From NCBI GenBank assembly GCA_019694155.1, contig JAIBCN010000142.1:1-64000 (forward strand): a stretch of DNA of 64,000 nucleotides. The letters are read 5' to 3'. The translations under genes and the position numbers were made by a program. Source of the DNA: Vicinamibacteria bacterium (lineage in GTDB: Bacteria; Acidobacteriota; Vicinamibacteria; Fen-336; JAGNNV01). Under the pieces are notes generated by a model. It had not been told where the DNA came from, did no database searches, and saw nothing but the letters and a program-made list of their open reading frames with translations. Of the stretch, positions 25,562-33,956 are shown piece after piece. Each line of letters starts with the position of its first letter. The first letter of the stretch is position 1.

Positions 25562-26113
25562 ATGCGAAAGGCACTCATCGTCGGTCTTCTCACCCTGTCG
25601 GTCGCGTCGTCGGCCGCCGCCGACCAGGACACGCTGCCGCCATGGACTCATCTTCGCCCCCTGAGTCCGAGCGCCATCGATCTGGTGTGGGAATCCATGT
25701 CGCGATCCTCGATCGTCGAGGATCTGCTGCGGCAGCTCGAGGAGACCGGCGTGGTCGTCTATCTGACCGACAGCATGCCCGGCGCGGTCGCGGGGCCCGT
25801 CTCCCATCTTGTGTACCTTTCGAACGACGAGACCACGAGATACCTGCTCGTCCGCATCGATCGCTGGCGTTCGACGCCCTTCGAGCGCATCGCTCTTCTC
25901 GCGCACGAACTTCAGCACGCGCTCGAAGTGGCGGCGGCCCCCGAGGTGAGGGACGCGCAGGGCCTCGCGAAGCTGTATCGGCGCATCGGCTGGGAAAACC
26001 AGAAGGACAAGTTCGAGACGGAGGCCGCGCAGATGGTCGGGGCGCAGGTCAGGAAGCAGCTCACGAAGGGCCCGGATCGCCGCCGTGCCGCCCTGTCCGT
26101 GGCGACTCCCTAA
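25562..26113 (+). CDS. Secreted HExxH-type metalloprotease-like protein
   Basis: A 183-residue protein with a signal peptide (KALIVGLLTLSVASSAAAD). Near residue 115 it has ALLAHELQHALEVA, a HExxH zinc motif (HELQH) with a following Glu, in a helix typical of minimal zincin-like domains. No other domain is visible and no family name is certain. Its end lies 13 bases from the end of the convergent trypsin-like gene, and it may act in the same compartment as that protease. Confidence 0.65.
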   Translation: MRKALIVGLLTLSVASSAAADQDTLPPWTHLRPLSPSAIDLVWESMSRSSIVEDLLRQLEETGVVVYLTDSMPGAVAGPVSHLVYLSNDETTRYLLVRIDRWRSTPFERIALLAHELQHALEVAAAPEVRDAQGLAKLYRRIGWENQKDKFETEAAQMVGAQVRKQLTKGPDRRRAALSVATP

Positions 26114-26126
26114 GACGGCCGAGCGG

Positions 26127-26855
26127 TCACCCGGCGGGCGGGGGAGCGAAGCGCTGGCCTGGCCTTGCCCGCCTCCGGGGTTCTCGACTCCTGTTCCGCC
26201 CTGTCTTGCCGATCTGGAGCAGTATCTGGGGCCCGGCGTACTTCTCATCTTCGCCCATCTCGCAGCGGTCGAAGCCACAGCGCGGCAGGGAAGCTTCGCA
26301 GTACGACGCGACTCCGCCGTACGACTTCGTGGAGATCACTCCGATCAGTTCCTTCGATGCCTTCAGGACCGCGGCGCCGCTGTCCGTCTCCACCACGCTC
26401 TGTCCGGACGCGGACAAGGTCGCGCGCCCCGCGCATTGCTGGCACCAGGAGTCGCCCTCGCAACGGCGGTTGAACTCGCCCATCTCGGCGAGAACGGACG
26501 GATGAACCTCAAGCTCGACGGGGACGTCTTTGCGGGTGACCACGAGCCACTTCGGAGGTCCCTTCCCGATCTTCTGCGCTTCGATCTTTCGGGGAGGAGC
26601 CGGCACGAATACGACGGCATAGTCCTGGGAGGAGAGCGATGTCACGAAGGAACCCTCGCCTCCCTGCAGCTTCAAGGCGCTGTGTGCGGCCGTCGTGATG
26701 CTGTGGATGTTGCCCACGCAGTGACTCGCGGTGGCGACGGCGAACTCCGTCGGACTCGTTCGAATGACGGAGCCATGGCACGTGAGCGATGGGCGGGCGG
26801 TGGCGAAGGTGACGAACCATGCGGGCGCCGCCGCGAGGACGAGGAGCGCGTTCAC
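26127..26855 (-). CDS. Exported trypsin-like serine protease
   Basis: A 242-residue protein from GTG 26855, which overlaps the stop of the upstream gene as GTGA; ATG 26882 is the longer alternative. A hydrophobic export segment (ALLVLAAAPAWFVTFATA) leads into a chymotrypsin fold: catalytic His in ATASHCVG (about 45), Asp in SSQDYAVV (about 78), Ser in VVETDSGAAVL (about 159), the last replacing the usual GDSGGP. Several cysteines (CEGDSWCQQC) suggest disulfides or metal. The basic C-terminal tail is probably disordered. Context makes it a partner protease of the CHAT protein. Confidence 0.72.
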   Translation of the reverse strand: MNALLVLAAAPAWFVTFATARPSLTCHGSVIRTSPTEFAVATASHCVGNIHSITTAAHSALKLQGGEGSFVTSLSSQDYAVVFVPAPPRKIEAQKIGKGPPKWLVVTRKDVPVELEVHPSVLAEMGEFNRRCEGDSWCQQCAGRATLSASGQSVVETDSGAAVLKASKELIGVISTKSYGGVASYCEASLPRCGFDRCEMGEDEKYAGPQILLQIGKTGRNRSREPRRRARPGQRFAPPPAG

Positions 26856-27703
26856 TGCTCGACCCAGATCGCCGTGACGCAAGGGTGGTCGTCGGTCGCG
26901 AGCATCTTGTCCATCCAGAGGCGGAGGTTCCCCGGGGTGAGGAGGGGAACGTATTCGCTCAGTTCCTCCGGGGCGCCCGTGCCCGCCACGCAGTTCGAGG
27001 AGAACACGACCGACATCGAGCGCTCGCCCTCGTTGGGGCCGAAGGGGAGGTCCAGTCGCTCGGCGCCCTTCGCGACCTTGATCAGGACCTGTGGCTGGCT
27101 CGCCTGGGCGACCAGAGCCTGACGATCCGCCACGAACTGATTCGATATCGTGGTCTTCGCTCCCGCTCCCTCTTGGACGGAGAGGTCGTAGATGGGGTCG
27201 CGCTCGCCCTCCCTGAGGAAGGGGATCCCCACGAGACGTCCACCCGGCAGCCAGACGGTGCCGCGGGCGCGGCCCGCGTCCACCCTGCGATTCGGGTTGT
27301 ACTCCTGCGCCAGGGTCTTCAGATCTACGGAGTTCATCAGATCGTGCCAGTCGGGCGGAAGGGCGGAGGGATGGCCCGGACTAGCGGTCTTGGTGAACAC
27401 CACGGGCCCCCGGGGCACGACGCCCTGCGGCCCCATGTCGACCTCGGCCCCAATCAAGGAGACTTCGAGCAGGTAGTGTCCGCCGGGGGCCGGGATTGTA
27501 CGGAGGCCGAAGGCGGCTATCGCCTCGGGCGTCGCGAAAGAGGCGGGGTTGCGCAGGCCCTCCATCGGCACGTAGAGGAAGGGCGTGTGCTTGTCGCTGA
27601 GGCCGGGCGAGAACAGCGCGACGCCCCGGTAGCCCGCGCCGCCGTCCTTGAAGACGTGGACCAGCGTGATACCGGAGAACTCCATCGTGAATTGCCAGCT
27701 CAT
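26852..27703 (-). CDS. Unknown protein between CHAT and trypsin-like genes
   Basis: A 283-residue protein from ATG 27703, preceded by a GGAG site. No signal peptide, membrane helix or known motif is seen. It is beta-rich at the start (FSGITLVHVFKDGGAGYRG; YLLEVSLIGAEV) and at the end (SMSVVFSSNCVAGTG, CVTAIWVEQ). The gene starts 31 bases after the CHAT stop and its TGA overlaps the protease GTG. It could be a substrate, adaptor or inhibitor in this operon; that is inference from position only. Confidence 0.6.
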   Translation of the reverse strand: MSWQFTMEFSGITLVHVFKDGGAGYRGVALFSPGLSDKHTPFLYVPMEGLRNPASFATPEAIAAFGLRTIPAPGGHYLLEVSLIGAEVDMGPQGVVPRGPVVFTKTASPGHPSALPPDWHDLMNSVDLKTLAQEYNPNRRVDAGRARGTVWLPGGRLVGIPFLREGERDPIYDLSVQEGAGAKTTISNQFVADRQALVAQASQPQVLIKVAKGAERLDLPFGPNEGERSMSVVFSSNCVAGTGAPEELSEYVPLLTPGNLRLWMDKMLATDDHPCVTAIWVEQ

Positions 27704-27734: not shown

Positions 27735-30700
27735 TCAGTGTCGGGACGATGAGGGGGAAGCGCTGGCCTCCGGCCGCGCGAACTCCGTGACCGCGAGCGC
27801 ATCGGCGACCGCGAGGTCCTCGGAGGTGAGAGAGGCGTCGTTTCGCAGCCGAGCGAGGGCCCGGGAGGGAGAGCCCTCTGATTCGAGGTATTCGAAGAAT
27901 CGCGGCATGAGCCGCCCCATCGCGTCGTCGGGGACCGGCCACAGCGTGCCGACCACGCTCCGCGCGCCGGCGGCGAGGAACGCCCCCGCGAGGGTCATCG
28001 ACCCCACGTCGCCGGCCTCCGCGGTGGAGCAGCCGGCGAGCACCGCCAGCCTGAGGCCCCTCAGATCCAGAGAACGGACCCGCCTTATGGTGAGGAACGA
28101 AGGACGGTTGGACGAATCAACGAGGACGAGGCTCGAATCGAAGGGCCGCGAGGCGTTGACGAGCGCGTGGCCCGAGAAGTAGAAGAAGTCCGCCTTTGGA
28201 AGGAGAGAGAGGATTCTCTCCGTGGTGGCCTCTTCGCCGCTCAGAAGGCGGGCGCGCAGCTGCCTGGCCAGCGTCGCGGCCTCGATCGACGCCCGTGGCA
28301 GCTTCGGGAACTCGGGGCCGTCCGGAGAGGCCGTGACGATCAGGGGAGAGCGCCAGGGGGCGGGCGGAGCGGGGGGCGCCGATTCAGGCGCTGGAGCGTA
28401 GGTAAGAGCCGCGCGAGCGCCGAGCCTGATGCCGTCGCTCAGCGGAAGGGCGGCGAAAGGGACTCGCGCGAGGTCTTCGGTAACGGTGAGAGTCAGCGCG
28501 CGCGCCTTCGCGATCTCCGATTCCCAGGGCCCGAGGAGGACGGCGGCGAGCCTCCGCCCTTCGGCCTCGCCCGGAAGACCATTGCGCCGCGCGGCCACGA
28601 AGGCGCCCACCAGTTCCCGCCTGCGATCCGCGTCGATCGGCGCCGCGCGAAATCGCGACCTGCCTCCGCACACGAGCCATGAGAGCAGGCTCTTCGAGGC
28701 CGGGATGAAGGCGAGCGAACATCCGGTCGCGCCGCCCCCCGGCAAGGCCCCGGATCGGACGTTGCTCGTGGCCGCCCAGTAGCGGACCGCCAGATCCGCG
28801 ACTCGGGCCTGCTCCGCATCTCCGCGACCGGCTGCGATCTCCGCGAGCGCCGCGTAGGCGGGCCGGATCTGGTCGGAGCCGGCGTCGGACAACTCAGGAT
28901 CGTCCGGTCGTTTCGCCTCGTAGAGGGTCACCGCCTCGCCAAGCGCCTTCGTGGCGGGGTCGATGCGCCCTGCTCTCATGAGGGCCAGTCCGTGCGCGGT
29001 CATCAAAGGGATTTGACGGCCCCAGGAGCCCCGATTCCCCAACCACTGAAGCGCCTCTGCTACCAGCGCATCGTTTTCGGGCTCCACCGTGGCCCGCACG
29101 CGGAGCGCTTCTCCCGACATCCGCGCGCGAAGAAGAGGATCCTCGATCATCGAGGCCATGCGCGCGGCCGTGAGGGCCGCCTCCTTCGCCCCCGCGCGGT
29201 CGATCGTCCGGAGGGCCAGGGCCACGCCGTTCGCGGTGTCCGCGGCTGAGTCCTGCAGGCCCGCCGAGATCGCTCGCGCGTGGGCGGAGCGGTAGACCGC
29301 CGCCGCGGCGCGCGGCAGTCCCGAACGCACCAGGTCGTCGCCCACCACGGTCACCGAGAGCAGCGCGGAGCGCGGATTGAACAGACGCGGGGCGCGTTTG
29401 AGCGCTTCGAGACGCGCCTCCCAGTCCACCTCGGTGAGGCCGAGTTTTCCATGGGCTTCGCCCACCTGTTGTCCCGCGAACGCGGCCCACGAGGGCTCAC
29501 CGGCCTTCGCGAAGAGGCGCGCCGCCTCCCGGCGGTGCCGGATCGAAAGGTCGGGCTGGCCGCCACTGCTTGCGATGACGCTGCGCACATAGTGCGCGCG
29601 CCCGCAGAGGAACGGCTGGCGGGAGGCGTTGGCGGTCCCGAGAAGGCGGTCAAGCCGCTCGCGCGCTCGCGCACTGTCGCCGCGCTGAAGGTCCGTCACG
29701 GCCTGCCAGAGGTCGCGCCAGCCTCTGAGGTTCGGGGGCAGCCGCGGCGCGGTCTGAAGTCTGGCGAGAATGGTCTCGGCCTCGCCCCAGCGGTTGCTCT
29801 CGTGCAGCATCGCGACCTCGGACACGAGTCGGAGCGTCGCCCCGTCCGCTTCGGGCAGGACGGAGATCTGGCGGATGGCGTCGGGGACGTCGGGATCATC
29901 GAGGCTGCGGGCGAGGGCCGGCCCGAGGCGAGACAGCGCCTCCCGGCCTCGGGGCTCCGCTGCCGCCTTCAATCCGTTCGAGAAGAACCACGAGCGAACG
30001 CCCTCAGGCGATTCGCGCGCGAGAGCCTCGACCTCGGCGAGCGCGCCACGATCCACCGCTCGTGAGAGCCGCTCCAGGAAGCCCTCCCGGTCGATCCACT
30101 CGTCGGACTCCGCCCGGAGGCGCTCTGCCTCGATCACGGCGAGCCAGGCCGCGTCCTTCTCGGCGGCGCGCGCCTCGATCCAGGCCGACCGGGCATCCTC
30201 GTGAAGGTGCATCTGTTCGAGGGCGAGCGCGCGGTTCATGAGGGCCTCGGGCGAGGCCGGGGCCAGTTCGCGAGCGCGGAGGGCGTGCTCGAGCGCGCGC
30301 GGCGGGTCCGCCATCCTTCCCGTTTTCTCCGCGCGGACGAGATACGCGGCGGCGAGATCGCTCGACAAGGCCGCGTCACCGGGAGCGGAGCGGGCGAGGC
30401 GCTCGAGGTTTTCGACCGCTTCGTCATAGCTGCCGAGAACCAGCTGCGCTGCGCTCAGGGCGCGCTGGTTTTCACGCGTGGGAACCTCTCTCGCTTCGGC
30501 CTCCAGGGCGGCGGCCGCCGAGAGGATCTCGACGTTGAAAGACGATGGGAGGCCGCGGCGGGTCTCGGTGAGGGAGCCGGGGCGGAAACCTCCTCCCAGG
30601 CGCGCGGCGAAGAGGCGATGCGCGCCCATCGCGTTCGTGAGGGGCAGGAGACGCCGTTCGTACGGGGTCAGGAAGAGACCCGCGCGAGCCGCGTAAGCCA

Positions 30701-30809
30701 TGAAGATCGAAGCGCCGAGCGCGCACACCCCGACCCAGGCTGCCGCGCGCCGAAGTCCAGGTCGTGGTCCCGCCCCTTGGGTAGTCACTCCTCGACAGTT
30801 TCCCACCAT
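27735..30809 (-). CDS. TPR-repeat CHAT domain (caspase-like) protease
   Basis: A 1024-residue protein. One hydrophobic segment near residues 25-45 (AAWVGVCALGASIFMAYAA) probably anchors it in the membrane. Residues about 90-700 are helical TPR-like repeats (YDEAVENLERLARSAPGDAA; ALEHALRARELAPASPEAL). From about 745 a CHAT domain follows with the catalytic His in FYFSGHALV (about 881) and Cys in VLAGCSTAEAG (about 924), then GAFLAAGARSVVGTLWPV. The dyad is intact, so it is probably an active cysteine protease. It lies 45 bases after a propeller histidine kinase gene and ahead of an unknown gene and a serine protease gene. Confidence 0.88.
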   Translation of the reverse strand: MVGNCRGVTTQGAGPRPGLRRAAAWVGVCALGASIFMAYAARAGLFLTPYERRLLPLTNAMGAHRLFAARLGGGFRPGSLTETRRGLPSSFNVEILSAAAALEAEAREVPTRENQRALSAAQLVLGSYDEAVENLERLARSAPGDAALSSDLAAAYLVRAEKTGRMADPPRALEHALRARELAPASPEALMNRALALEQMHLHEDARSAWIEARAAEKDAAWLAVIEAERLRAESDEWIDREGFLERLSRAVDRGALAEVEALARESPEGVRSWFFSNGLKAAAEPRGREALSRLGPALARSLDDPDVPDAIRQISVLPEADGATLRLVSEVAMLHESNRWGEAETILARLQTAPRLPPNLRGWRDLWQAVTDLQRGDSARARERLDRLLGTANASRQPFLCGRAHYVRSVIASSGGQPDLSIRHRREAARLFAKAGEPSWAAFAGQQVGEAHGKLGLTEVDWEARLEALKRAPRLFNPRSALLSVTVVGDDLVRSGLPRAAAAVYRSAHARAISAGLQDSAADTANGVALALRTIDRAGAKEAALTAARMASMIEDPLLRARMSGEALRVRATVEPENDALVAEALQWLGNRGSWGRQIPLMTAHGLALMRAGRIDPATKALGEAVTLYEAKRPDDPELSDAGSDQIRPAYAALAEIAAGRGDAEQARVADLAVRYWAATSNVRSGALPGGGATGCSLAFIPASKSLLSWLVCGGRSRFRAAPIDADRRRELVGAFVAARRNGLPGEAEGRRLAAVLLGPWESEIAKARALTLTVTEDLARVPFAALPLSDGIRLGARAALTYAPAPESAPPAPPAPWRSPLIVTASPDGPEFPKLPRASIEAATLARQLRARLLSGEEATTERILSLLPKADFFYFSGHALVNASRPFDSSLVLVDSSNRPSFLTIRRVRSLDLRGLRLAVLAGCSTAEAGDVGSMTLAGAFLAAGARSVVGTLWPVPDDAMGRLMPRFFEYLESEGSPSRALARLRNDASLTSEDLAVADALAVTEFARPEASASPSSSRH

Positions 30810-30854: not shown

Positions 30855-33800
30855 CTAGTCCCCTTTCGCTCCCGCGGCCGCCTTCGGCAGGGTGAGGCAG
30901 AAGCGCGACCCCTCGCCCGCGATCCCCGACGACTCCACCCAGACCCGGCCGCCGTGGAACTCGACGATCCGCTTCACGAGGGCGAGGCCGATGCCCGTAC
31001 CCGGCGTTTTCTTGTCGAGGCGCTCGAACAGTTCGAATATCTTGTCCTTGAACCTGGGATCGACGCCGACTCCATTGTCCGACACCACGATCACCGGTTC
31101 CGGCCCCGGGCGGAGGCTGACGTCTATTCGCGGGGCCGGCTGGTCGCCGCGGAATTTCACGGCGTTCCCCAGCAGGTTCTCGAACACCTCGAGCAGGCGG
31201 ACCTTGTCCCCGGCGACCGTGGGCAGGTCTCCCGCCACCGTGAGCTTCATGACGTCGATATCGGGGACGCGCTGGGCGGCCTCCAGGATCAGCGGACCGA
31301 GCGGGCGTGATTCGGGCGGGCCGACGACGCGTCCGATCCGCGAGAGGTCGAGGAGCTGGTTCAGGAGCACCCCCATGGTCTCCGCCGCTCGCTGGATGCG
31401 CTGGATGTCCCCGCGAAGCTGCTCGACGCGGCCCTCGGACGCGTCCTGCTCGACGAGCTTGGCGAATCCGCGAATGGTCACGAGCGGCGCCTTCAAATCA
31501 TGGGACACGGTGTAGGTGAACCTTTCGAGCTCACTGTTCTTGGTTTCCAGTTCGGAGATCAGCCGTTGCCGCTCCGCGACCGATTCGCGCAGCTGACGAT
31601 TGAAGGACTCGAGTCGCGAGTTGCGCATTCCCAGGCTGCGCAGACGGAGCTGGTGTCCGCTCAGCAGCAGGGCGCCGAGCGCCAGTGCGGAAACGAACCA
31701 GACCATGGGGCGCTGCCTCCACGGTGTCGGTATGACGATCTCTCCGGAGACGGCCTCCGGGCCCCACGGCCCGTTGGCGCTCCAGGCTCCCGCGACCCTC
31801 AGGCGATAGCGGCCGGGCGGGAGGTGGGTGTAGCGGATCCCCGCGGAGGTGAGCTGCGCGGGCCCCTGCCACTCCTCGTCGAGGCCGTCCAGACGGTAGC
31901 GGCACAGCGCCTGTTCATCGGTCGAGAAGCTGATGGTGCGGGCGCGGAACACCACCGACCGGGGACTGGCGGGGAGGCTCGCGGCCTCGTCGGCCGGGCG
32001 ATGTTCGCCCTCGATGTCCACGCCCTGCAGTTCCACGGAGGGAGGGACGGTCAGCCGGACGTCCAGCGCCTCGCGGTAGATCGAGAGGCCCTGATCGGTG
32101 CCGATCCAAACCCGTCCCCTCGAGTCCACGATGCCGGCGCCCCGATTCGTTTCCCGTCCCGCGAGTCCCTGACGCACCGAGAGCTGTCTGAAGCCTCCGG
32201 GCTCGGAGACGAAAACGCCATCGTCGGTGCCCGCCCACAGCTTCCCCGAGTGGTCCCGGATCAGAAAATAGATGGGCCGCGACAGGGCCAGCCGTCCCGT
32301 CGTGCGCTCGAGCGCCTTCCCGACGAGGCGATAGAGCCCTCCTGCCGTGCCCACCAGGACTTCTCCGTCAGCGGTCGTGGACACCCCGTAGACGTTGTCG
32401 CCCCGGCGATCGGGACTCACCGCGCGGTGCCACGGGACGCGGGAGTCGAGATCGGGCGCGGACAGCCCGGTTCTCCAGAGAAGACCCGAACTGGTGGCCA
32501 CGAAGAGTCGATCGCCGCCATCGGTCGCGAGCCACCGACCGCCGCTTGGAGGGGATCCGATGGAGGTGAACGGAACCGCTTCGAAGCGTCCGGCTCGCTG
32601 CACATACAGGGCCCGCGCTCCGAGCACGAAGAGCCGGCCTCGCCCGTCGCGTTCCACGGAGGCCGGGCGTTCGGGGAAGGCGTGAAGCCTGACTCGCTGG
32701 TCGCGGCCGATCTCGAGCAGGGCGATGGAGGCGGCGGCCCACACCGTGCCGGACCGGTCGACCGCGAAGTCGAGAAGGCGCGGCACGCCGCCCCTCAGAT
32801 CCTCCGACAGCTCGCGGACGGGGAAGGCCTTCTGGATCCGCGCGCCGCCGCGATCGAGGAAAGTCAGCCCCGCGTTGTGGCCGAGAATGAAGCGTCCGTC
32901 GGGCAACTCGGCGATCGCCGTCACCTCGTTCTCCGCGAGCCCGGCCCTCGCATCCATCGAGAGGAACCGGCGGCTGCCCACGCGGGTGAGGCCGCGAAGG
33001 CTCCCGATCCAGATGGCGCCTTCGCGATCGGCCAGGATGGAAGTAATGCCCCCTTCGCCGAGCATGCCCTGTGCGGGACCCAGCTCCCTGGGCTTCGATT
33101 CGCCCGCCTCGAGCATGTACCCGCGATACCGCGTGCCGAAGAAGACCGCGCCGGTCGGATCGATGTTGATGGCGGCGGTGGCGGCTCGCGGAGGTCCGGG
33201 CTGATCGAGCGGGGCCGACAAGTCGAAATCGAGCCGCGATCCGAAAACTCGGACGCGGCCATCGCGCACGGCGCCCAGCCAGCGTCTGGAGAGCACGAGG
33301 AGCGCGGGCCGTCCTTCGACCATGCCGGAGTTGAGCGCCAGGATGGGATCGCGAAGGCGGGGATCGGCGCCCCAACCGCAGTCGAGCGCGCCGCGCAGGC
33401 GGCACAACCCCGTGCTCGTGCCTACGAACAGGTCCCCGTCGAATCGGCCCAGAGAAGTGGCGGCGCCGCGATCGCTTCCGAGGTCGATCTGCCGCCACGA
33501 GCCCTGGTCAAAGAGCCACACGCCCTCCGTGGTGTTGACCAGAAACCGTTCGCGTCCCGCCTGAACGGCTTGCTCGAGAGCTTGAACCTGGCCCCGGAAA
33601 GGGGCTCCGATGGGAGGGGCATGGGGCCGCCAGGTGCCCCCTTCGTTGCGGAAGAGCCGGCCGTCGTAGCTCGCGATCACCGCCCGCCCCTGATCGTCAA
33701 CGGTCAGGCCCGCGCACTGGGTCGTGGTGAGGCCCTGCCGAACACCCTGCGGTTCGAAGGTGGCGCCGTCGTAGGAGACCACGGTCTCGCGATTCAGGAT

Positions 33801-33956
33801 CCAGATCTGGCCCGTCGCATCCTGGGCAAGGTGATAGACGAGCGCGCTCGGCAGGCCCTCGCCGACCGAGTAGGTGGTGATGGGAAGAAGGGACTGGTCC
33901 GGCGCGGCGTCTGCCGAGGCGAGCGAAACAGCCAGAGCGAGCGCCGGAAGCAGCAT
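30855..33956 (-). CDS. Two-component-propeller sensor histidine kinase
   Basis: About 1033 residues. A signal peptide (LLPALALAVSLASADA) leads a long periplasmic propeller of Reg_prop-type repeats (GQIWILNRETVVSYDG; GAIWIGSLRGLTRVG; GKLWAGTDDGVFV), a Y_Y_Y-like domain ending LPPGRYRLRVAGAW, a membrane helix near residue 752, a coiled linker, then HisKA with the phospho-His in YTVSHDLKAPL (about 818) and HATPase motifs NLLGNAVKF, VSDNGVGVD and GTGIGLALV. There is no receiver domain and no response regulator gene nearby. ATG 33956 is chosen for the signal peptide; TTG 33986 is possible. Confidence 0.9.
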   Translation of the reverse strand: MLLPALALAVSLASADAAPDQSLLPITTYSVGEGLPSALVYHLAQDATGQIWILNRETVVSYDGATFEPQGVRQGLTTTQCAGLTVDDQGRAVIASYDGRLFRNEGGTWRPHAPPIGAPFRGQVQALEQAVQAGRERFLVNTTEGVWLFDQGSWRQIDLGSDRGAATSLGRFDGDLFVGTSTGLCRLRGALDCGWGADPRLRDPILALNSGMVEGRPALLVLSRRWLGAVRDGRVRVFGSRLDFDLSAPLDQPGPPRAATAAINIDPTGAVFFGTRYRGYMLEAGESKPRELGPAQGMLGEGGITSILADREGAIWIGSLRGLTRVGSRRFLSMDARAGLAENEVTAIAELPDGRFILGHNAGLTFLDRGGARIQKAFPVRELSEDLRGGVPRLLDFAVDRSGTVWAAASIALLEIGRDQRVRLHAFPERPASVERDGRGRLFVLGARALYVQRAGRFEAVPFTSIGSPPSGGRWLATDGGDRLFVATSSGLLWRTGLSAPDLDSRVPWHRAVSPDRRGDNVYGVSTTADGEVLVGTAGGLYRLVGKALERTTGRLALSRPIYFLIRDHSGKLWAGTDDGVFVSEPGGFRQLSVRQGLAGRETNRGAGIVDSRGRVWIGTDQGLSIYREALDVRLTVPPSVELQGVDIEGEHRPADEAASLPASPRSVVFRARTISFSTDEQALCRYRLDGLDEEWQGPAQLTSAGIRYTHLPPGRYRLRVAGAWSANGPWGPEAVSGEIVIPTPWRQRPMVWFVSALALGALLLSGHQLRLRSLGMRNSRLESFNRQLRESVAERQRLISELETKNSELERFTYTVSHDLKAPLVTIRGFAKLVEQDASEGRVEQLRGDIQRIQRAAETMGVLLNQLLDLSRIGRVVGPPESRPLGPLILEAAQRVPDIDVMKLTVAGDLPTVAGDKVRLLEVFENLLGNAVKFRGDQPAPRIDVSLRPGPEPVIVVSDNGVGVDPRFKDKIFELFERLDKKTPGTGIGLALVKRIVEFHGGRVWVESSGIAGEGSRFCLTLPKAAAGAKGD

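What the first reader, a model, noticed from the sequence alone, without database searches (positions are those of the whole stretch)
26852..27703. Orphan gene between two proteases may be their substrate or inhibitor
It has no signal peptide or known motif, is coupled to the trypsin-like gene by a GTGA overlap and follows the CHAT gene by 31 bases. Lack of a signal peptide conflicts with a periplasmic place for the two proteases, so topology needs checking.
Basis: inference. Interest (0 to 1): 0.5.

Follow-up and report, generated by a model that had tools for sequence, protein, structure and literature searches.

The report
Conserved partner of bacterial CHAT proteases
The supposed orphan gene belongs to a previously unannotated bacterial protein family that nearly always sits beside a membrane-anchored caspase-like (CHAT) protease and is often followed by a second protease of changing type, which points to a modular protease relay with this protein as the constant middle part.

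Summary
The ORF is real: minus strand, SD GAGGAG, GC3 0.88, 31 nt after the TPR-CHAT gene and overlapping the trypsin-like gene by GTGA. It is not an orphan. Genes beside related TPR-CHAT genes in other Acidobacteriota encode the same divergent protein ('X'). A profile without the window protein finds it at E=5.7e-9, ranked first among 1124 proteins. Of 14 X loci found by profile without using CHAT, 13 lie beside or within three genes of a CHAT gene. G11, H39 and a Cys near the C-terminus are invariant in 35 of 35. X has no Pfam, NCBIfam, PADLOC or solved-structure match. The second peptidase varies: trypsin, caspase, papain-like C39, subtilase or fungalysin in 12 of 35 loci, absent or unrecognised in the rest. 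So X is the constant partner of CHAT, not an inhibitor of one trypsin. Whether CHAT cuts X is untested; one clade keeps X beside a CHAT that lost its His/Cys dyad. The topology conflict is real: CHAT looks membrane-anchored or lipidated, but X has a visible export signal in only 10 of 35. Family and cassette confidence about 0.9; mechanism about 0.5.

The parts
26852..27703 (-). CHAT-companion protein X, 283 aa; family-invariant G11, H39, C275
27714..27719 (-). Shine-Dalgarno-like GAGGAG upstream of ATG 27703
27735..30809 (-). TPR-CHAT protein, 1024 aa, N-terminal TM-like helix (about residues 23-41), His881/Cys927 dyad intact
   Evidence: (CHAT 2.5e-43)
26127..26855 (-). Trypsin-like peptidase, GTG start (or TTG 26882); H45, D78, S159 triad by inspection; hydrophobic N-terminus like a signal peptide
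   Evidence: Pfam Trypsin 1.4e-4, 22.2 bits against cut-off 20.6
26852..26855 (-). GTGA stop/start overlap between X and the trypsin-like gene
30855..33956 (-). Sensor histidine kinase (Reg_prop propeller, Y_Y_Y, HisKA, HATPase), 45 nt upstream of CHAT; probable first gene of the operon; the start is my choice of Met before a signal-like stretch

Best explanation
The gene encodes a divergent member of an undescribed beta-rich protein family (X) that is the constant partner of TPR-CHAT proteins that look membrane-anchored. The usual cassette is a signalling input (ECF sigma factor plus zinc-finger anti-sigma, sometimes fused to the N-terminus of CHAT; in this window a sensor histidine kinase), then TPR-CHAT, then X, and often a second, interchangeable peptidase. 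Shown: family membership, tight linkage to CHAT, interchangeable third gene, invariant Gly/His/Cys. Inferred: X docks on TPR-CHAT and is the element through which the triggered CHAT protease acts. In loci with an intact CHAT dyad it is most likely cut or repositioned by CHAT, and this frees or recruits the second peptidase (trypsin-like here). In the clade with a dead CHAT, X would work by binding alone. X is not a dedicated inhibitor of the trypsin-like protein.
For: (1) Leave-one-out profile: window X E=5.7e-9, first of all 1124 proteins; 22 of 24 members rank first. (2) A profile search of 396 genomes of the phylum gives 30 X loci in 19 genomes; of 11 not in the profile, 10 are at a CHAT gene. 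Three more are adjacent, within three genes, and adjacent: 13 of 14 in all. (3) The own genome has a second CHAT-X cassette (G000:C55). (4) Second peptidase by Pfam in 12 of 35 loci: S1 (window, L084, L105), C14 (L066, L210, L213), C39 (L077), S8 (L078, L160, L205, L214), M36 (L211). Of 17 same-strand next genes within 100 nt of X, 9 are Pfam peptidases, one being an S9 that may not belong to the cassette; of 10 genes further out 1 was, with one more just below cut-off. (5) CHAT and X distances agree: r=0.82 over 33 loci, 0.53 over 29 without extra rows of one clade, 0 of 2000 permutations reaching either. (6) G11, H39, C275 in 35 of 35; last Cys within 13 residues of the end in nearly all. 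(7) Precedent: TPR-CHAT Csx29 cuts its neighbour Csx30, which inhibits an ECF-like sigma factor (PMC10028731, passages).
Against: No binding or cleavage was shown. Five loci of one clade (L067, L082, L090, L206, L207) keep X although CHAT has lost His and Cys, so X is not always a CHAT substrate. In most close pairs X is better conserved than CHAT (0.54 against 0.40 for L212/L213), so X has constraints of its own. X lacks a visible export signal in 25 of 35 loci although CHAT looks extracytoplasmic, so co-localisation is unproven. One X (L208) has no CHAT nearby. Most starting members were chosen by position next to CHAT, so only the 14 later loci count as independent. L076 fails the leave-one-out test (E=1.3) and L073 is weak (0.031).
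Confidence: 0.5

Rival explanations
1. X is strictly the proteolytic substrate of CHAT, like Csx30 for Csx29: CHAT cuts X, perhaps near its conserved C-terminal Cys tail, and a fragment or the released partner does the work.
For: Tight CHAT-X pairing; intact dyad in 30 of 35 readable CHATs; Csx29-Csx30 precedent and non-conserved cleavage sites there; bacterial gasdermins are cut by neighbouring proteases about 20 residues from the C-terminus.
Against: X is retained beside dead CHAT in five loci and is often more conserved than CHAT; no cleavage data.
Confidence: 0.3
2. X is an inhibitor (propeptide-like) of the second peptidase encoded after it.
For: Four-base overlap of X with the next gene in the window, L065 and L160; other overlaps in L078, L083, L211.
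Against: The second peptidase belongs to five unrelated families and is absent or unrecognised in most loci, while X and CHAT stay.
Confidence: 0.05
3. X is itself a catalytic or cofactor-binding protein using the invariant His39 and near-C-terminal Cys275 (thiol enzyme or metal site); CHAT is its scaffold.
For: G11, H39, C275 in 35 of 35; Tat-type signals in 7 of the 10 exported members, the route for folded proteins; retention beside dead CHAT.
Against: No fold or family match to any enzyme; no coordinates were available to test whether His and Cys are close.
Confidence: 0.15
4. X is a membrane-damaging effector released by proteolysis, as bacterial gasdermins are.
For: Similar gene neighbourhood: bacterial gasdermins lie beside caspase-like (CHAT included) and trypsin-like genes (review PMC9612521); similar size (recalled); beta-rich models.
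Against: No profile or fold match to any PDB chain, gasdermins being in the PDB by recall; partners look extracytoplasmic.
Confidence: 0.1

Closest known systems
Craspase module Csx29 (TPR-CHAT) - Csx30 - CASP-sigma of type III-E CRISPR
   Same: TPR-CHAT protease next to a dedicated partner protein, with an ECF sigma factor in the neighbourhood
   Different: CHAT here looks membrane-anchored; the Csx29 model scores 13.4 bits against a cut-off of 300; the X profile matches no PDB chain, Csx30 included by recall; a second peptidase is present. CRISPR genes were not searched for.
Bacterial gasdermin-protease operons
   Same: A small protein beside caspase-like, CHAT or trypsin-like genes
   Different: No sequence or fold match; X is constant and the extra peptidase swaps; the N-terminal palmitoylated Cys of gasdermins (recalled) is not there, X has an invariant near-C-terminal Cys
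EACC1-caspase two-gene conflict systems (PMC7159879)
   Same: Constant partner plus caspase-type peptidase plus variable effectors
   Different: EACC1 is described as a single TM helix with short extensions; X is soluble-looking and beta-rich; here the variable part is a separate peptidase gene
RseA/DegS-type regulated proteolysis of anti-sigma factors
   Same: Membrane anti-sigma factor combined with proteolysis
   Different: Here an anti-sigma-like finger is in several loci fused to TPR-CHAT itself; X has no counterpart that I know of

Membership tests
CHAT-companion family X (defined here) | Profile match with the protein itself left out | tested here: met
   E=5.7e-9, rank 1 of 1124
CHAT-companion family X (defined here) | Adjacent to a TPR-CHAT gene | tested here: met
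   31 nt downstream of CHAT
CHAT-companion family X (defined here) | Invariant G11, H39, near-C-terminal Cys | tested here: met
Csx30 / Craspase substrate | Sequence or fold relation to Csx30 | tested here: not met
   no PDB profile match, no NCBIfam match for P0001; presence of Csx30 in the PDB is recalled
Csx30 / Craspase substrate | Partner CHAT is Csx29 | tested here: not met
   NF041237 13.4 bits against cut-off 300
Csx30 / Craspase substrate | Cleaved by the neighbouring TPR-CHAT | not testable with these tools
   needs biochemistry
Bacterial gasdermin | Gasdermin fold | tested here: inconclusive
   no PDB match by profile or by Foldseek/VIA for two models; weak evidence, since fold search failed for every chain
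Bacterial gasdermin | Protease-dependent pore formation | not testable with these tools
   needs experiment
[quoted passage not shown]
   window X best 19-residue hydropathy mean 0.99 and beta-rich model; definition
Peptidase S1 (third gene of the window) | Pfam match above cut-off and His/Asp/Ser triad | tested here: met
   22.2 bits against 20.6; H45, D78, S159 by inspection; solved-structure search gave nothing better than E 0.23

The most novel reading that the evidence does not exclude
An extracytoplasmic, caspase-like initiator/executioner relay in soil bacteria. A membrane-spanning anti-sigma-TPR-CHAT (or a CHAT behind a histidine kinase) senses envelope stress or attack, uses the constant adaptor X with its invariant Gly/His/Cys, and fires whichever executioner peptidase (trypsin, caspase, C39, subtilase or fungalysin) is plugged in behind X.
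Probability: 0.3. Interest if true: 0.82.

Novelty: new variant of a known kind. Interest (0 to 1): 0.62.

Why it matters
It turns a hypothetical gene into a member of a protein family tied to one group of TPR-CHAT proteases. Together they form a cassette in which the presumed initiator protease and its partner stay fixed while the second peptidase is exchanged. If the relay is real, it would be a bacterial counterpart of initiator/executioner caspase logic, apparently at or outside the membrane, and it would give TPR-CHAT proteins outside CRISPR a candidate natural partner that can be tested by co-purification and cleavage assays.

Tried and rejected
Single-sequence searches with the window protein gave only sub-threshold local hits in 40 and 396 genomes (best 7.3e-4, 18.5 bits) and nothing in genome contigs, plasmids, phages or PDB. 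Those weak hits were not followed. The trypsin protein as bait found only one weak hit besides itself in 80 genomes. CHAT as bait worked.

Fold search: the window-protein model is weak (pLDDT 57); the model of relative L097 is good (pLDDT 77, pTM 0.82). Both gave no significant match, and VIA gave no chain with Z>=2 of 996 and 1000. This total lack is unusual and may be technical, so I claim no new fold.

Rejected: X as inhibitor of the trypsin-like protein; X as a Csx30 homologue by sequence; X as a PADLOC defence protein (0 of 24 at E<=0.01, one chance-level 0.023). P0002 and the third gene of the own paralogue cassette (L065) show no pairwise similarity; L065, L083 and L148 third genes look like peptidases only by eye. 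No X in 198 genomes of the phylum of G430, though the tool warns that an empty answer without a positive control shows nothing.

Dropped rows: L096, L097, L099, L112, L114, L121 and L216 are contigs already counted under another locus id; L100_2 (fragment) and the weak L215 match were left out of the 35; the three X found last (L220, L221, L224) came after the 35 were fixed and were checked by eye only; L081's CHAT could not be aligned for the dyad. In one search the last entry (L063) was the wrong strand and is ignored. Genes were called by my own codon-usage caller; some starts, and the CHAT calls of L210, L212 and L213, were wrong and were replaced by six-frame reading for the dyad test. 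Signal peptides, lipoboxes and Tat motifs were judged by eye, not by a predictor.

Full report
Observation. The ORF at 26852-27703 (minus) encodes 283 aa. ATG 27703 follows a GAGGAG and the frame has GC3 0.88, while the in-frame extension upstream lacks a coding signature. It lies 31 nt after the TPR-CHAT gene (27735-30809; Pfam CHAT 2.5e-43) and shares GTGA with a trypsin-like gene (Pfam Trypsin 22.2 bits, cut-off 20.6). A sensor histidine kinase gene ends 45 nt before CHAT on the same strand. The protein alone matches nothing convincing: Pfam, PADLOC, NCBIfam, PDB, plasmids, phages, genome contigs.

It is not an orphan. I used the CHAT protein as bait in 396 genomes of the phylum and read the neighbouring genes. 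Next to most full-length CHAT relatives, including a second cassette in the same genome (G000:C55, L065), lies a 240-360 aa gene with the same layout: an N-terminal strand with FxG, an HxP.L strand, a mid GxL strand, an 'SN'-type strand, an HFxxxYxL-like segment, and a Cys close to the end. A CHAT alignment brought 80 named loci. Iterated profiles gave 24 unique members. In leave-one-out tests 22 of 24 rank first among 1124 proteins; the window protein scores E=5.7e-9; L073 (0.031) and L076 (1.3) do not rank first. The best-scoring proteins outside the member list in the window's test, L100_2 and L101_10, are also next to CHAT. Some of the 80 loci are the same contigs as G-handle loci (matching contig lengths), which places the window's genome among the Acidobacteriota.

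Independent test of linkage. Early members were picked by position, so adjacency there is by construction. A profile search of 396 genomes gave 30 X loci in 19 genomes. Eleven were not in the profile: 10 lie at a CHAT gene, the exception being G194:C6 (L208). The phylum of a Gemmatimonadetes locus gave 2 of 121 genomes, one adjacent to CHAT and one within three genes. A further relative (G034) has X directly after a CHAT fragment. Total 13 of 14. Both same-genus genomes, 75-78% complete, show no X, so the cassette is patchy.

The third gene. Besides CHAT and X, a Pfam-supported peptidase lies in 12 of 35 cassettes and belongs to five families: S1 (window, L084, L105), C14 (L066, L210, L213), C39 (L077), S8 (L078, L160, L205, L214), M36 (L211). 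L065, L083 and L148 have candidates by eye only. Counting mechanically, 17 X genes have a same-strand next gene within 100 nt, CHAT itself excluded; 9 of these are Pfam peptidases, including an S9 after L067 which in sister loci is separated from X and may be unrelated. Two more (L210, L213) have a small protein and then a caspase. Of 10 genes taken further out (10 of the 15 that one search listed), 1 was a peptidase above cut-off (Lon) and one just below. So the partner is constant and the executor is exchangeable, which speaks against X as a fold-specific inhibitor of the second peptidase.

The first gene and the topology. CHAT N-termini carry a TM-like or lipoprotein-like hydrophobic stretch in 15 of 17 (the two others have doubtful starts). 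Several have an anti-sigma-type zinc finger before it (zf-HC2 below its cut-off in L077 and L105; by eye elsewhere) and an ECF sigma gene upstream; a finger in the cytoplasm and one TM would place TPR-CHAT outside. X has an export signal by eye in 10 of 35: seven Tat-type (L067, L076, L082, L088, L090, L206, L207), one lipoprotein (L211), two Sec-like (L072, L208). The window X has none.

What X may do. G11, H39 and C275 are invariant in 35 of 35 aligned sequences, and the last Cys lies within 13 residues of the C-terminus in nearly all. CHAT and X distances correlate (r=0.82 for 33 loci; 0.53 for 29; 0 of 2000 permutations each), which shows joint inheritance and not contact by itself. In most close pairs X is better conserved than CHAT, so X is not a fast-evolving bait. 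The CHAT dyad is intact in 30 of 35 readable sequences and lost in one clade of five, all with Tat-type X. X there must work without CHAT proteolysis.

Structure. The window-protein model is poor (pLDDT 57, pTM 0.62, with better-modelled core strands). The relative L097 is good (pLDDT 77, pTM 0.82; beta-rich). No significant match in PDB or BFVD, no VIA match with Z>=2. No coordinates were given, so the His-Cys distance could not be measured.

Literature. Searches of an open-access library listed no description of this family or cassette; subscription papers are missing there. Passages read: Csx29/Csx30/CASP-sigma (PMC10028731), Craspase cleavage sites (PMC11106740), bacterial gasdermins beside proteases (PMC9612521), EACC1 systems (PMC7159879), bacterial Death-like domains (PMC8195603), PMC10907252.

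Verdict. Family membership and cassette: about 0.9. Mechanism (constant CHAT partner that couples CHAT to an interchangeable peptidase, probably cut by CHAT where CHAT is active): 0.5. Interest 0.62.

Noticed in passing
window 25562-26113 (+): Small secreted-looking protein with an HELQH (HExxH) motif, convergent with the trypsin-like gene and 13 nt from its end; no Pfam match. Possibly a further metallopeptidase.
   Followed up: partly
L067, L082, L090, L206, L207: A clade of CHAT proteins that lost both catalytic His and Cys but keep X, there with a Tat-type signal.
   Followed up: partly
L208:7104-8063 (+): X-family protein with a signal-like N-terminus, without CHAT nearby, followed by a MacB/FtsX-like gene.
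   Followed up: no
L076, L077, L103, L105, L211: Zinc-finger anti-sigma-like segment at the N-terminus of TPR-CHAT with an ECF sigma gene upstream (zf-HC2 below cut-off in L077 and L105; others by eye): looks like a transmembrane anti-sigma factor with a protease outside.
   Followed up: partly
L224:1654-2481 (+): Frame after X holds a TGSGHG...LLSCWA pattern as in clan CD (caspase/CHAT-like) peptidases; motif judged by eye and from recall.
   Followed up: no
L209:8874-9449 (+): Gene directly after X encodes a small membrane-like protein with a sub-threshold holin-like Pfam match (E 0.0011, below cut-off).
   Followed up: no
window 30855-33956 (-): Histidine kinase with Reg_prop propeller and no receiver domain, as first gene of the window cassette in place of ECF sigma/anti-sigma.
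   Followed up: no
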